NCBI GenBank assembly: GCA_016124255.1
Contig: WGOB01000084.1
Location: forward strand, 1 to 35,423
Origin: Alphaproteobacteria bacterium
GTDB taxonomy: Bacteria > Pseudomonadota > Alphaproteobacteria > Caulobacterales > Aquidulcibacteraceae
Length of the DNA stretch: 35,423 nucleotides
Direction of reading: 5' to 3'
Below are positions 4,344 to 9,330 of this stretch, piece by piece. A program made the translations under genes and the position numbers. The notes beneath the pieces were generated by a model, which ran no database searches, had not been told where the DNA came from, and saw nothing but the letters and a program-made list of their open reading frames with translations. Numbering within the stretch: position 1 is the stretch's first letter; the number at the start of each line of letters is the position of its first letter.

Positions 4344-5480
4344 TCAAGCCGCGAGCGTCAGCTCGCTATAGCGCTTCAGGTGGTGATCGACGTTGCCGAA
4401 CTGGGCGTCGATCATGGTGACGCGCTTGAAGTAGTGGCCGACCTTCATTTCGTCGGTGACGCCCATGCCGCCGTGGATCTGCACCGCGGCCTGGCCGACG
4501 AAACGTCCGGCGCGGCCGATCTGCACCTTGGCCCCTGCGGCGGCGCGTGCGCGCTCGTCGGCGCTCTCGCCGATCTTGAGCGCCGCCATATAGGCCATTG
4601 ACACCGATTGCTCGGTGGCCATGAACATGTCGACCATGCGGTGCTGCAGCACCTGGAAGCTTGCGATCGGCACGCCGAATTGCTTGCGCTGCTTAGCGTA
4701 CTCCAGCGTCAGCGCATGCATCTGACGCATGCAGCCGACGGCCTCCGCCGCGAGCGCCGCGATGGCCTCGTCTGTCACCCGCTCGACCAGCGGCAGCGCT
4801 TCGTCGGCAGGCCCAATCAACGCGTCGGCGCCGACCGAGACGTTTTCGAAATACACTTCCGAGGCACGGAAGCCGTCGATGGTGGGATAGTCGCGCGTGG
4901 TGACGCCCTTGGCGCCCTTGGGCACGATGAACGCGGAGACGCCCTTGGCGTCGCGCTGACCGCCTGCGGTGCGCGCGGTGACGATGAGATGATCCGCCTG
5001 CGGGGCGCCGATGACGACGGCCTTCTGCCCGTTCAGGACGTAGCCCGCGCCGTCCTTCTTCGCCGTCGTGGTCAGATCGGCCAGATTGAATCGACCTTTC
5101 GGCTCGGCGTAGGCGAACGCGACGACACGCTCGCCGGCGCCGATGGCGGGCAGATGCTCGCCTTTCTGCGCGTCGGAGCCGCCATGCTTGAGGAAACCCG
5201 CGCCGATCACCGCGGTCTGCAGATAGGGCTCGACCACCAGCCCCTTGCCGAACTCCTCCATGACGACGAGCACATCGATCGGGCCGCCGCCAAGGCCGCC
5301 ATGCTCTTCTGGGATCGGCGCCATCAAGAGGCCCATCTCGGCGAACGTCGCCCAATTCTTCTTCCAAGCGTCGGCGCTCTTGAGCATCTCGCGGCGCTTG
5401 TCGAAGTCATAATCGGCCGCGACGAACTTCGCGATCGAGTCGCGCAGCATGTTTTGTTCGTCGGTGAAATTGAAATCCAT
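4344..5480 (-). CDS. Acyl-CoA dehydrogenase (short-type subunit)
   Basis: 378 residues from the ATG at 5478-5480, preceded by GGAGAG; the frame is open upstream but without coding character. The N-terminus MDFNFTDEQNMLRDSIAKF is the typical acyl-CoA dehydrogenase start. The FAD/substrate middle domain (VVAFAYAEPKGRFNLADL, then NGQKAVVIGAPQADHLIV) and the C-terminal helical domain (LEYAKQRKQFGVPIASFQVLQHRMVDM; VQIHGGMGVTDEMKVGHYFKR) are complete. Proteins of this kind often pair with a ~400-residue partner; such a partner lies at 8134-9330, separated by the Uma2/RT-TIR genes. FAD-dependent acyl-CoA desaturation, cytoplasmic; substrate unknown. Confidence 0.93.
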   Translation of the reverse strand: MDFNFTDEQNMLRDSIAKFVAADYDFDKRREMLKSADAWKKNWATFAEMGLLMAPIPEEHGGLGGGPIDVLVVMEEFGKGLVVEPYLQTAVIGAGFLKHGGSDAQKGEHLPAIGAGERVVAFAYAEPKGRFNLADLTTTAKKDGAGYVLNGQKAVVIGAPQADHLIVTARTAGGQRDAKGVSAFIVPKGAKGVTTRDYPTIDGFRASEVYFENVSVGADALIGPADEALPLVERVTDEAIAALAAEAVGCMRQMHALTLEYAKQRKQFGVPIASFQVLQHRMVDMFMATEQSVSMAYMAALKIGESADERARAAAGAKVQIGRAGRFVGQAAVQIHGGMGVTDEMKVGHYFKRVTMIDAQFGNVDHHLKRYSELTLAA

Positions 5481-5554
5481 CGGGCTCTCCTCGCGCCAGT
5501 CATAGGCAAGCGGGCGCCCGGCGCAAGATGACGTGAGGGGAAATCGCCCCGCGC

Positions 5555-7270
5555 TCAGCCGCGGCGGCCGAAAATCCATTCCAGGAACGAACGCTTCGGC
5601 TTTGGCGCGCGCGGCGGATACGGCGCAAAGAGCGGCGGCAGCGCGTTGGGTCCCGCCGGCACGGGTTGGTACGCCCCGGTCGCCGGCACGGCGGTGCGCG
5701 ACGCAGGCCGCGCCGCCCTGGGCTTGGGCGGCGGACGCGCCGCATCGAGAAGCCGCAGCGCGACCTTGTCGGGATCGCTCGCCCAGACGACGTGGTTCTT
5801 GCCCTTGAGCAGCGGGAACTTGGCGAGGTCCGGCTTGCCGACGATGAGCGGCACCACGCGCTTTTGTCCGTTCACCTCCATCGCGAGCGCGGTGTTGATT
5901 TCCAACACGGGCCAGTCCTTGGCCACGGAATTGGACGACACGATCGCCAAGACGGTGCGCGCTGAACCCAGCGCGGTGTTGATCTTCTTGGTGAAGTTTT
6001 CGCCCCAGCCGATATGCGGCTCATCGAGGAACGTCTTGAGGCCGAGCCGCTCGCAGGCTTCGTAGATCGGCCGCGCGATCAGCTCCTTGTCCTCGCTGGC
6101 GTGACTGATGAAGACTTCGAAATTCTCCGCGCCAAACACCATCTGCTTGATGAACTTGGACGGGTTGGGATCAAGATCGAGCACGCGCCCGCAAAGCTTG
6201 AGGAAGACCGGATCGGCGGGGCCGCGCACCATCTTGATGTAGGCGAGCTGGCCATAGACCACGTTGCGGAACGCCGCGCCCGGCGTGACCGGGCCGCGGC
6301 CCTTCTTCGGCTTGGCGCCTCTGTGCTTCAGGAAGTGCTCGCTGCCCGCAGCGTCGAGCCCGAACTTCTCCCACGCATGCAGCATCGCGCGGACCTTGCG
6401 GATGCGCGAGCGCTCGACATTGGCCGCGACGTTCACCGTGAGCCCGGTGACGTTCTGGCGGACGCTGCGGCTCTGCAGGCGCACTTTGCGCAGATTGATC
6501 GCAAAGCCCGCCGCCGCGATCGCGCGGTCCAGCGCCTCGCCGGGGCGCACGCCAAGACTTGCGCCCTCGGTCTGCACCTTCATCGCGACAGCCGGGGGAA
6601 AGACCCCCTGGTTGGTCGAAAAGGTGATGTCGTCGGCGTAGCGCGAATAACGGAGATTGTGATCCTTCGCCAGGCGCGTCAGGCGTCGGTCGAGGCTCGC
6701 GGCGATGAAATTCGAGAGCGCCGGCGATGTCGGCGCGCCTTGCGGCAGGCCGTTGCGCAGCGTGCAAATCTGCGCGAGCACGGTGGCCGCACCCGGCCCG
6801 CACAGAAACGGCGCCGCCATGAACAGCCCGCGGATGCGCCCGAAATTGATGCTCGGAAAAAAATCCTCCAGATCGATGTTGAGCACGAGGCGCTGGCCGG
6901 CATGGCCTTTTGCGTTCGAGAGCACGCCGCGCTCCTTGATGAAGCCGTGTGCGCTTGGGTGGGCCTCGTAGGCGCCCGCGAGGATCGGCGCGAGCTTCTT
7001 CTGCATCTGCCGCACAAGGCCCGTGGGCGCATCGATGCGGCGCATGCCGCCCGAACGTTTCGGAATTTCAAACGTGCGGTAGCGCTGATTTTCCGGCGCC
7101 GTGTAGAGCACCCACACCATCGTGCCGTGCGCGACGCCGAAATAGCGGGCGACATCGTAAGCGTTGCGCAGCGGAGCGCCGTCGATGGCGAGCGCGCCGA
7201 GCGGAGGCGGCGGGACCGGCGCGCCCGCTTGCGGCGGCTCGGGCGGCGCGTCGGAAGTGGAAGGAGGCAT
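5555..7270 (-). CDS. Retron-type reverse transcriptase fused to a C-terminal TIR domain
   Basis: 571 residues. Order: Pro-rich lead (1-25), short N-terminal domain, reverse transcriptase (about 60-300), linker, TIR domain (383 to about 480), Pro-rich stretch (512-558), basic/aromatic tail SFLEWIFGRRG. RT signatures: NAKGH (119-123, the retron NAxxH motif), NIDLEDFFPSI (131-141), GLPQGAPTSPALSN (174-187), catalytic RYADD (210-214) and the retron hallmark VTGL (274-277). TIR: FEVFISHASEDKE, and WPVLE with Glu457 in the place of the NAD-cleaving glutamate. RT-TIR retrons are a known antiphage class: the RT makes an RNA-linked msDNA and the effector domain is expected to kill or arrest infected cells, here by NAD+ depletion (inference). 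GAGGGACGGG precedes the ATG; the ncRNA candidate is immediately 5'. Uma2 is upstream. Confidence 0.93.
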   Translation of the reverse strand: MPPSTSDAPPEPPQAGAPVPPPPLGALAIDGAPLRNAYDVARYFGVAHGTMVWVLYTAPENQRYRTFEIPKRSGGMRRIDAPTGLVRQMQKKLAPILAGAYEAHPSAHGFIKERGVLSNAKGHAGQRLVLNIDLEDFFPSINFGRIRGLFMAAPFLCGPGAATVLAQICTLRNGLPQGAPTSPALSNFIAASLDRRLTRLAKDHNLRYSRYADDITFSTNQGVFPPAVAMKVQTEGASLGVRPGEALDRAIAAAGFAINLRKVRLQSRSVRQNVTGLTVNVAANVERSRIRKVRAMLHAWEKFGLDAAGSEHFLKHRGAKPKKGRGPVTPGAAFRNVVYGQLAYIKMVRGPADPVFLKLCGRVLDLDPNPSKFIKQMVFGAENFEVFISHASEDKELIARPIYEACERLGLKTFLDEPHIGWGENFTKKINTALGSARTVLAIVSSNSVAKDWPVLEINTALAMEVNGQKRVVPLIVGKPDLAKFPLLKGKNHVVWASDPDKVALRLLDAARPPPKPRAARPASRTAVPATGAYQPVPAGPNALPPLFAPYPPRAPKPKRSFLEWIFGRRG

Positions 7271-7280
7271 CCCGTCCCTC

Positions 7281-7375
7281 GTACCTTACTAGGAGTACGG
7301 GGCTTCAGCCCCGTACTCCTAAAGATCGACATTTGTTGTTCCGCCGCAGGATCGACAGCGGACGTAGAAGGACCG
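7281..7375 (-). ncRNA. Candidate retron msr-msd RNA
   Basis: Retron RNAs sit just 5' of their RT gene. Reading the minus strand through this 216-base gene-free spacer shows: GUCCUUCU (7366-7373), a possible small msr hairpin UCCGC...GCGGA, the A-rich ACAACAAAUG, and a perfect 13-bp hairpin AGGAGUACGGGGC-UGAA-GCCCCGUACUCCU (7291-7320; one more A-U pair at 7290/7321). AGUAAGGUAC (7281-7290) follows, ten bases before the RT start codon. GUCCUUCU can pair with AG-U-AAGG-U-AC if two U bulges are allowed, giving an a1/a2-like closing stem around the hairpin. Position and order fit msr-msd-RT. Against: the a1/a2 pairing is short and bulged, and the hairpin core GGGGCTGAAGCCCC is also a common REP-type sequence. 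Boundaries are guesses. Confidence 0.45.
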
Positions 7376-7486
7376 GATGCCTCTTGCGCGCGATATCAGC
7401 GCGGGCGGCGACGCGAAGTCAATCGGCGCCAGGGTGCGCGGCTCAACCCGCGCGCGGGCGTTTCCGCGCGGCCACAGCCGGCCCGC

Positions 7487-8095
7487 TCACACCATGTCGG
7501 CGACGGCGAGCATCAAGGCGGGCGCGAACAGCGGCGAGAGCGATGCGTCCGGCTTCACTTGCTCTGCAGGAGGATAATCGCCCGCGTTCGGATTGCGGAA
7601 CACGTGCACGATCGCGTGCTGCACGTCGACCACCCAATATTCGGGAATGCCCGCGGCGGCGTACTTTCCACGCTTCTCGCCGAGATCGTCGGGAAGCGAG
7701 GAATGCGCGACTTCTACCACCAGGACCACATCTTCGCCCGTTGGCCGCCGCTCGCGACTCAAGGGAAGGCGGGCGATCATCAAGTCCGGCTGGCGCAGGT
7801 CGCTGTCCCCGATCTGTAGACCGCCGCCGGGCGCCACGCGAAATTCCGCCCTGAGTCCAGCCTCGGCGAGGCCTAGAACCAGCAATTCGTTGATGCGAGA
7901 TTCCGCATCGATGTGCGGCGCTCCCGGAGGCGGCGTCATCATGATCCTCCCGTCCCAGAGTTCATGCTTGCCGGGCTCGTTGAGCAGGCCCGCTTCGGCC
8001 ATACGGTCGAACTCAGCGACGGTCAGTCGCTTTTCGCGCGCGGGAAAATCCGTCGCCTCCTGCCTCCTCAAAGTGGGACGCGCGTCGTCTGCCAT
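7487..8095 (-). CDS. Uma2 family protein (DUF820, putative PD-(D/E)xK endonuclease)
   Basis: 202 residues, typical Uma2 size. Family pattern visible: LTVAEFDRMAEAG and HELWDGRIMMTPPP at the N-terminus, DLRQPDLMIARLP (the PD of the PD-ExK core, near residue 103), VVLVVEVAHSSL (ExV strand, near 125), KRGKYAAAGIPEYWVVDV (Lys/Tyr helix and final strand). Uma2 proteins have a restriction-endonuclease-like fold and are widespread, often in multiple copies; their roles are mostly unproven. The gene starts 38 bases after the acyl-CoA dehydrogenase (8134-9330) stop and ends 216 bases before the RT-TIR start, same strand. It may be part of the same acquired cassette, but a functional link with the retron is only inference. 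Confidence 0.9.
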   Translation of the reverse strand: MADDARPTLRRQEATDFPAREKRLTVAEFDRMAEAGLLNEPGKHELWDGRIMMTPPPGAPHIDAESRINELLVLGLAEAGLRAEFRVAPGGGLQIGDSDLRQPDLMIARLPLSRERRPTGEDVVLVVEVAHSSLPDDLGEKRGKYAAAGIPEYWVVDVQHAIVHVFRNPNAGDYPPAEQVKPDASLSPLFAPALMLAVADMV

Positions 8096-8133
8096 GGCCT
8101 GGAGCTTACCTCATTGGGCGCGTCCAAGCCACC

Positions 8134-9330
8134 TCAGAGGCCGAGCACCATCTTGGCGATGATGTTGCGCTGGATCTCGTTGGAGCCGCCATAAATCGAT
8201 GTCTTGCGCATGTTGAAATAGTTCGGCGCGGCGTGGTGGGCGTAGTCGGGGCCGATCCCGAATTCGTTGCCCCCGTCCTGCGGAAAGCCGCGGAAATACG
8301 GCGCCGCGTAATGGTTCACGGCCTCCAAAGTGAGCTCGGTCAGGCGCTGCTGGATCTCGGTGCCCTTGATCTTGAGCAGCGAGGATTCCACGCCCGGTCC
8401 CTTGCCCGCCTGCTCGCTCGCGAGTGTGCGCAGCTCGGTGTACTCCAGCGCCGTCAGATCGATCTCGAGTTCCGCCACCTTGCGCTTGAACTCGCTGTCT
8501 TGCAGCAGCGGCTTGCCGTCGTCGCCGAGTTCGGTGTTGGCGATGGTTTTGAGGCGGTTGACCGCATTCTTGGAACGCGCGACGCCGGCGATGCCGGAGC
8601 GCTCGTGCACCAGCAGATATTTAGCGCAGGTCCAGCCCTTGTTCTCCTCGCCGACGAGGTTTTCGACCGGCACTTCGACATTGTCGAGGAAGACGTCGTT
8701 CACTTCGTGGCCGCCATCGAGCATAATGATCGGGCGCACCGTGACGCCGGGCGATCTCATGTCGATCAGCAGGAAGGAGATGCCTTCCTGCTTCTTCGCC
8801 GCCGGATCGGTCCGTACAAGGAAGAATCCCCAATCGGCGAATTGCGCCAGCGTCGTCCAGGTCTTTTGGCCGTTGACGATGTATTTGTCCCCTTGGCGCA
8901 CGGCGCTCGTGCGCAGGCCCGCGAGGTCGGAGCCCGCGCCCGGCTCGCTGTAGCCCTGGCACCACCAATCATCGCCGTTGTAGATGCGCGGGAGGAAGCG
9001 CTCCTTCTGCGCCTGCGTGCCGAACGCCATGATGACGGGCGCGACCATCGCGATCCCGAACGGCAGAATCGGCGTCGTCTCCGCACGCGCGCATTCCTCG
9101 TTCCAGATGTATTTCTGCGTCGGCGTCCAGCCGGGGCCGCCCCACTCCGTCGGCCAGGACGGCGCCACCCAGCCCTTCTCTGCAAGAATCTTGTGCCAGG
9201 CGAGGAAGTCCTCTTTCGCCATCTGGTCGCGCGACGTCTTCTCGCGGAGATAGGCGGGGAAGCTGTCGCGGATGAACGCGCGCACTTCGTCGCGGAAGGC
9301 GAGCTCCTCGGGGGTGAATTCCAGATTCAT
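8134..9330 (-). CDS. Acyl-CoA dehydrogenase (long-type subunit)
   Basis: 398 residues, full length. N-terminus MNLEFTPEELAFRDEVRAF; middle domain with WWCQGYSEPGAGSDLAGLRT (FAD/substrate motif, near residue 127) and NGQKTWTTLAQFADWGFFLVRTD; C-terminal domain ending NYFNMRKTSIYGGSNEIQRNIIAKMVLGL. The YGGSNEIQRN segment is the classic C-terminal FAD-contact motif. Catalyses FAD-dependent acyl-CoA oxidation, electrons passing to ETF. The ~400-residue type commonly works with a ~380-residue partner encoded next door; the likely partner here is at 4344-5480, on the far side of the Uma2/RT-TIR genes. The ATG is preceded by GAGGATGCGCC. Exact substrate unknown. Confidence 0.95.
   Translation of the reverse strand: MNLEFTPEELAFRDEVRAFIRDSFPAYLREKTSRDQMAKEDFLAWHKILAEKGWVAPSWPTEWGGPGWTPTQKYIWNEECARAETTPILPFGIAMVAPVIMAFGTQAQKERFLPRIYNGDDWWCQGYSEPGAGSDLAGLRTSAVRQGDKYIVNGQKTWTTLAQFADWGFFLVRTDPAAKKQEGISFLLIDMRSPGVTVRPIIMLDGGHEVNDVFLDNVEVPVENLVGEENKGWTCAKYLLVHERSGIAGVARSKNAVNRLKTIANTELGDDGKPLLQDSEFKRKVAELEIDLTALEYTELRTLASEQAGKGPGVESSLLKIKGTEIQQRLTELTLEAVNHYAAPYFRGFPQDGGNEFGIGPDYAHHAAPNYFNMRKTSIYGGSNEIQRNIIAKMVLGL

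What the first reader, a model, noticed from the sequence alone, without database searches (positions are those of the whole stretch)
7281..7375. Putative msr-msd RNA directly upstream of the RT
The only sizeable spacer next to the RT carries, in the right order, a perfect 13-14-bp hairpin, an A-rich segment, a small stem and a bulged pairing (7366-7373 with 7281-7290) that could be a1/a2. The closing pair ends ten bases before the RT start codon. TGTCGATC also occurs twice in this segment. Against it: the hairpin core resembles common REP sequences.
Basis: inference. Interest (0 to 1): 0.58.

Follow-up and report, generated by a model that had tools for sequence, protein, structure and literature searches.

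The report
Retron template RNA beside RT-TIR gene
The short stretch just before this bacterial reverse-transcriptase gene encodes a conserved folded RNA that very probably serves as the template and primer from which the enzyme makes the small DNA of a known kind of anti-phage system, a retron.

Summary
The finding holds up. The gene (minus strand, 7270-5555) is an RT fused to a TIR domain, best PADLOC match RT-TIR_XII, E 2.8e-158. Directly upstream, minus strand 7380-7267, is a 114-nt RNA with the retron plan: a1, one msr stem-loop, linker, long hairpin, a2. The true pairing is 7380-7364 with 7284-7267, and a2 contains the RT start codon. REP is excluded: the 28-base hairpin core occurs once in the 3.34-Mb genome. 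Over 20 distinct RT-TIR loci, a1/a2 and the msr stem show 98.2% paired cells and 6 pairs with both-side changes, against 1.9 in shuffles (0/500). The hairpin is always there (10-15 bp) though its sequence is far more variable. In 60 related genomes a covariance model rings beside all 19 RT-TIR genes and elsewhere only weakly, twice. The msr loop recurs in 8 of 56 more distant RT loci. Best reading: msr-msd of a type XII retron, a new member of a known kind. The DNA product, branch G and TIR control are inferred.

The parts
7417..7422 (-). -35-like hexamer TTGACT of the presumed promoter; a weak -10-like TGATAT lies at 7398-7393 (spacer 18)
   Evidence: TTGAC[AT] found 37-42 nt upstream of a1 in 20 of 20 loci (no chance control was run). 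The consensus scan reports no sigma-70 site here (0 found).
7364..7380 (-). a1: 14 nt (7380-7367) plus UAC (7366-7364), pairs with a2
   Evidence: 97.6% of cells of the a1/a2 helix paired over 20 loci, 4 of 17 pairs with changes on both sides
7363..7363 (-). invariant G directly after a1: candidate branch (priming) guanosine
   Evidence: invariant in 20 of 20 aligned loci; position analogous to rG15 of Retron-Eco2 (passages of PMC12405507); role inferred
7340..7362 (-). msr stem-loop, 8 bp, loop CGATCCT
   Evidence: 99.4% of cells paired, 2 of 8 pairs with changes on both sides; a stem-loop around GATCC also upstream of 8 of 56 more distant RT loci
7322..7339 (-). A-rich linker between msr stem-loop and hairpin; the cDNA presumably ends in it
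   Evidence: aligned; role inferred by analogy
7290..7321 (-). msd hairpin, 14 bp with loop TGAA; sequence variable, structure kept
   Evidence: stem of 10-15 bp in 20 of 20 loci; median pairwise identity 0.56 against 0.88 for the rest of the RNA
7267..7284 (-). GUA (7284-7282), bulged C (7281), a2 (7280-7267); a2 also holds a GAGGG Shine-Dalgarno-like run and the RT start codon
   Evidence: an ATG inside a2 is in frame with the RT in 18 of 20 loci
5555..7270 (-). RT-TIR fusion, 571 aa (RVT_1 69-278, TIR_2 386-497; YADD at 211, TIR glutamate motif WPVLE at 453-457)

Best explanation
The segment 7380-7267 (minus strand) is the msr-msd RNA of a type XII (RT-TIR) retron. Shown: an RNA-like structure conserved with compensatory changes, tied to RT-TIR genes, with the anatomy a1 - msr stem-loop - linker - hairpin - a2. 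Inferred: transcription starts a few bases before a1. a1/a2 close the RNA and place an invariant G (7363) as the 2'-OH primer. The RT copies the stretch from just 5' of a2 through the hairpin into the linker, giving a branched RNA-DNA molecule with one DNA hairpin, roughly 45-55 nt. The fused TIR domain (probably an NAD+-cleaving effector) is held inactive in that complex and becomes active when phage infection disturbs the DNA, stopping the infected cell.
For: Protein: RT-TIR_XII E 2.8e-158; YADD and the TIR glutamate motif kept in 15 of 15 close sequences, window included. RNA: z -8.0; 20 loci, 98.2% of cells paired against 95.7% shuffled and 34-56% when slid, 6 pairs with both-side changes against 1.9; RNAalifold on the 14-sequence alignment finds 11 of 33 pairs with compensatory changes. 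Association: model R1 rings in 21 of 60 family genomes, namely all 19 with an RT-TIR gene (two other strong profile hits are RT-protease, and RT-Toprim), plus one weak hit beside the RT-protease of G020 and one weak hit in G055, where one search finds no RT match; 6 of the 19 were not used to build the model (E 7.5e-19 to 3.0e-29). In 384 other genomes of the class it does not ring. Anatomy equals Retron-Eco2, an RT-Toprim fusion: a1/a2, G directly after a1, one msr stem-loop, one long msd hairpin. A GATCC stem-loop recurs upstream in 8 of 56 more distant loci, about 5-fold over background per kb. A -35-like motif sits 37-42 nt before a1 in 20 of 20. In L016 the RNA is kept although the RT frame opens only 214 nt after it.
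Against: No expression or msDNA data. Rfam gives no retron match. 19 of the 20 loci come from one bacterial family, so sequence conservation is partly kinship, and the shuffles do not remove that. One covariation measure, further pair types, is no higher than in shuffles (303/500). In 6 of 20 loci the hairpin does not beat every one of 500 shuffles. At 108-124 nt the RNA is short for a retron (recalled yardstick). Forty-eight of 56 more distant loci lack the GATCC stem-loop as defined. Which G primes, where the DNA starts and ends, and the TIR control are all analogy.
Confidence: 0.94

Rival explanations
1. A cis-acting 5' leader that only controls translation of the RT-TIR mRNA (SD and ATG sit inside the a2 strand), without being a template for DNA synthesis.
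For: SD-like run and in-frame start codon lie in a2 in 18 of 20 loci, so the closed structure should hide them.
Against: In L016 the whole RNA is kept although the RT frame opens 214 nt after it; there, though, an a2-like end is repeated just before the ATG. In L121 the ATG in a2 is out of frame; in-frame ATGs lie 36 and 72 nt after a2 and one inside the hairpin, so its start is unsettled. A GATCC stem-loop inside an inverted repeat also occurs upstream of RTs scored as RT-Toprim and RT-protease, and a solved RT-Toprim retron uses an RNA of this plan as template.
Confidence: 0.04
2. A dispersed repeat (REP-like) or transcription terminator that happens to lie here.
For: GC-rich perfect hairpin in an intergenic gap.
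Against: Unique in the genome; 0 terminator-like sites; conserved flanking elements and association with the RT gene.
Confidence: 0.01
3. A non-retron RT-associated RNA, such as the template RNAs of DRT systems, copied by another priming mode.
For: RT plus adjacent structured RNA is also the plan of DRT2 (abstracts in the listing).
Against: The RT scores as retron type XII, and the 25 of 64 PADLOC hits shown are RT classes of retrons; the a1/a2-G-stem-loop-hairpin order is that of a solved retron.
Confidence: 0.02

Closest known systems
Retron type XII / Retron-TIR (RT-TIR fusion; PADLOC RT-TIR_XII)
   Same: Same protein family over 34-506 of 571 aa. Retron-TIR is listed among the phage-defence retrons of Gao et al. 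2020 in a passage of the commentary PMC7699616.
   Different: I could not read any published type XII RNA: Mestre 2020 is not held, Khan 2024 is not held, Millman 2020 and Gao 2020 were not looked up. Whether this RNA matches a published one is open.
Retron-Eco2 / Ec67 (RT-Toprim, type I-C)
   Same: RT is the nearest solved sequence (PDB 9lm3, E 1.6e-54). Same RNA plan: a1/a2, G directly after a1, one msr stem-loop, one long msd hairpin (passages of PMC12405507).
   Different: Toprim instead of TIR effector; msd of 67 nt against an estimated 45-55.
RT-protease retrons (type XI)
   Same: RT domain; msr-like loop TTGATCCTGCG in a stem inside an inverted repeat (L029, L031); a weak R1 hit beside the RT-protease of G020.
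   Different: Trypsin-like effector; longer RNA (138 and 151 nt as I bounded them in L029 and L031).

Membership tests
Retron (any type) | retron-clade reverse transcriptase with intact YXDD | tested here: met
Retron (any type) | structured msr-msd RNA next to the RT, closed by a1/a2 inverted repeats | tested here: met
Retron (any type) | branch guanosine after a1 | tested here: inconclusive
   G7363 is invariant in 20 of 20; branching itself not testable here
Retron (any type) | branched RNA-DNA product (msDNA) | not testable with these tools
   needs msDNA extraction and sequencing
Retron type XII (RT-TIR) | RT fused to a C-terminal TIR domain, single gene | tested here: met
Retron type XII (RT-TIR) | RNA matches a published type XII msr-msd model, if one exists | not tested
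   PADLOC has msr-msd models (passages of PMC9252829) but they are not among the tools; Rfam gave no retron match
Retron type XII (RT-TIR) | anti-phage activity dependent on msDNA | not testable with these tools
   a commentary lists Retron-TIR among defence retrons and says msDNA synthesis and structure were found to be needed for defence, without naming Retron-TIR in that sentence (passage of PMC7699616)
REP element | many dispersed copies in the genome | tested here: not met

The most novel reading that the evidence does not exclude
Because both the Shine-Dalgarno-like run and the start codon of RT-TIR lie inside a2 (18 of 20 loci), one transcript can be either folded template RNA or translated mRNA, not both. 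Folding, RT binding and copying of the RNA would then set the dose of the TIR effector: a built-in switch in which disturbance of the retron RNA by a phage opens translation of its own effector.
Probability: 0.18. Interest if true: 0.6.

Novelty: new member of a known kind. Interest (0 to 1): 0.42.

Why it matters
It gives a compact, well-bounded template RNA with a 20-locus comparative set for a retron type whose effector is fused to the RT, and a hairpin bound in structure but free in sequence that could serve as a scaffold for making short DNA in cells. It also points to a msr loop shared by some RT-TIR, RT-Toprim and RT-protease retrons, and to a testable overlap between template RNA and start codon.

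Tried and rejected
REP reading: rejected by genome-wide pattern counts. Terminator reading: no terminator-like site. Rfam on 6900-7700: four sub-threshold matches, all on the + strand, e.g. Yfr1 at 19.5 bits against a cut-off of 38. TGTCGATC repeat: 8 occurrences counting both strands, linker copy not conserved. The consensus promoter scan found nothing, although the -35-like motif is conserved. A first by-eye reading that L016 lacks the RNA was wrong: the model finds it 214 nt before the RT frame opens. The E. coli plasmid RT-TIR (L133) was looked at for an upstream RNA and not pursued: its RT is in two frames. Weak model hits with E 0.094-4.4 in L021, L023, L024, L026 and L031 were not followed as hits; the upstream regions of L024 and L031 were read. 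Literature searches for the RNA of RT-TIR retrons. No listing or passage that I saw describes it; passages only were read of PMC8867640, PMC9252829, PMC12948488, PMC12548924, PMC12405507, PMC7699616 and PMC8765062; Mestre 2020 and Khan 2024 are not held.

Full report
WHAT WAS CHECKED. The gene next to the finding runs on the minus strand, 7270-5555, 571 aa. Pfam gives RVT_1 (69-278) and TIR_2 (386-497). PADLOC's best match is RT-TIR_XII, E 2.8e-158, ahead of RT-Protease_XI (2.4e-114) and RT-Toprim_I-C (5.7e-103). YADD and a TIR glutamate motif (W...E; that this is the NADase glutamate is recalled) are kept in 15 of 15 close sequences, window included; of the two distant ones, L019 keeps both (as YSDD and WTNKE) and L018 keeps YADD but does not align at the glutamate.

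THE RNA. The minus strand 7380-7267 folds into a1/a2, an 8-bp stem-loop, a linker and a long hairpin, -64.0 kcal/mol, z -8.0. The real helix is 7380-7367 with 7280-7267, extended by UAC/GUA across one bulged C. a2 contains a GAGGG run and the ATG of the RT gene. The hairpin is not a repeat: the 28-mer is unique in the 3,341,538-base genome, and a 22-mer with up to 3 mismatches has only one other place.

RELATIVES. The search for related loci gave 70 loci. L004-L017 are the close RT-TIR genes. Of these 14, 13 showed the RNA by motif, and L016 was found by model. Alignment A2 scored on a1/a2 plus msr stem: 98.2% of 500 cells paired (shuffled 95.7, 0/500 as high); 6 pairs with both-side changes (shuffled mean 1.9, 0/500); 34-56% paired when slid. 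The number of further pair types was not above shuffles (303/500), a result that does not help. The shuffles do not remove relatedness. The hairpin forms 10-15 bp in 20 of 20 and beats all 500 mononucleotide shuffles in 14 of 20; the six that do not are L009, L015, L114, L116, L117 (10 bp each) and L109 (12 bp). Median pairwise identity is 0.56 for the hairpin and 0.88 for the rest, 190 pairs.

ASSOCIATION. The RT-TIR_XII profile matches 27 of 60 family genomes at E 0.001; it also catches other retron RTs (3 of 14 control genomes ring). I kept the 21 genomes at E 2.5e-88 or better. Of these G020 is an RT-protease and G021 an RT-Toprim with an inner stop, which leaves 19, one of them cut by a contig end (G051). 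Model R1 (built from 14 RNAs, 13 of them in these genomes) rings in 21 genomes: all 19, G020 weakly (E 0.0036, beside the RT-protease) and G055 weakly (E 0.0023; one search has no match in G055, and the 1.2 kb that I read beyond the hit shows no RT). The six genomes not used for the model (G022, G023, G030, G051, G052, G058) give E 5.2e-22, 7.5e-19, 8.6e-28, 3.0e-29, 1.3e-27 and 2.2e-28. In 385 genomes drawn from the class only the own genome rings (stricter filters and only 9 candidates scored per genome). In the same draw 9 genomes have a profile match at 1e-60 or better, the own one at 6.4e-158 and the other eight at 1.3e-103 or weaker; two of those eight (L125, L127) read as RT-Toprim from their sequence, six were not classified. 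L015, titled Hyphomicrobium, carries the same RNA. The distant RT-TIR of L019 (titled Maritimibacter) has a match at E 9.3e-4 directly upstream.

WIDER KINSHIP. Upstream of several more distant relatives an inverted repeat of 10-14 bp encloses a stem-loop with GATCC. A scan for a stem of at least 6 bp around GATCC within 400 nt upstream (less where the contig ends) finds it in 8 of 56 loci (0.36 per kb against 0.073 per kb in control sequence), all among the nearer relatives L018-L031. By PADLOC L018 is RT-TIR, L029 and L031 RT-protease; L022 and L024 score best as RT-Toprim; L025 scores best as RT-TIR with RT-Toprim close behind, and Pfam sees only the RT in L022, L024 and L025; L020 is a 364-aa RT without an effector; L027 was not classified. 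The other 48 loci lack the motif as defined, L019 among them (it has GAATCC).

PROMOTER AND START CODON. TTGAC[AT] lies 37-42 nt upstream of a1 in 20 of 20 loci; an ATG in a2 is in frame with the RT in 18 of 20. The exceptions: L016, where the RT frame opens 214 nt after the RNA, and L121, where the ATG in a2 is out of frame and opens 21 codons, with in-frame ATGs 36 and 72 nt after a2 and one inside the hairpin. The consensus scan finds no promoter, so the promoter rests on the -35-like motif.

MECHANISM. By analogy with Retron-Eco2 (passages of PMC12405507: a1/a2, branch G directly after a1, one msr stem-loop, one long msd hairpin, RNA-mediated assembly of the fusion protein), I expect G7363 to prime and the hairpin to become a DNA hairpin. 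A commentary on Gao et al. lists Retron-TIR among defence retrons and says that msDNA synthesis and structure are required for defence, without tying that sentence to Retron-TIR (passage of PMC7699616). TIR control by the RNA-DNA complex is inference.

NOVELTY. RT-TIR retrons are a known kind. I found no paper describing their RNA in the library searches listed under Tried and rejected, but the core classification papers are not held, and PADLOC ships msr-msd models that I could not run (passages of PMC9252829). So the safe claim is a new member of a known kind.

Searches were added. They changed the account of L016 and L121, confirmed G021 as RT-Toprim and showed that Pfam sees no effector in L022 and L025. 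None of this requires other odds.

Noticed in passing
window 4344-9330; L004-L007, L009-L014, L074-L076, L109, L114, L116, L117; L134-L146: The retron sits next to or between two acyl-CoA dehydrogenase genes at 15 of 20 loci (both flanks seen at 11, one at 4). Of 13 sites without it that I chose to read, mostly for their short gaps, 12 have the two genes 5-42 bases apart and one 197 (G056), G027 and G028 carrying the retron elsewhere. Other genomes have unread gaps of about 150-800 bases. A fixed chromosomal site, occupied or empty, seems likely.
   Followed up: partly
window 7487-8095 (-): A Uma2-family gene (Pfam E 3.2e-30) lies between the dehydrogenase gene and the retron here and in L004, L006 and L013.
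   Followed up: no
L016:2515-2836: Between the RNA and the RT ORF lies an extra stretch with another TTGACA and an a2-like end before the ATG; possibly a decayed second copy.
   Followed up: no
L123:1501-1606 (-): Weak model hit (E 0.0023) with an a1/a2-like closure and a TGATCCGGCGG loop but no RT gene seen: possible orphan msr-msd or chance.
   Followed up: no
L133 (E. coli plasmid NZ_CP019281.1): RT-TIR homologue annotated as two genes in different frames.
   Followed up: no
L018, L020, L022, L024, L025, L027, L029, L031 upstream of RT: A GATCC stem-loop upstream of RTs that PADLOC scores as RT-TIR, RT-Toprim or RT-protease, in records titled as several phyla (L027 not classified).
   Followed up: partly
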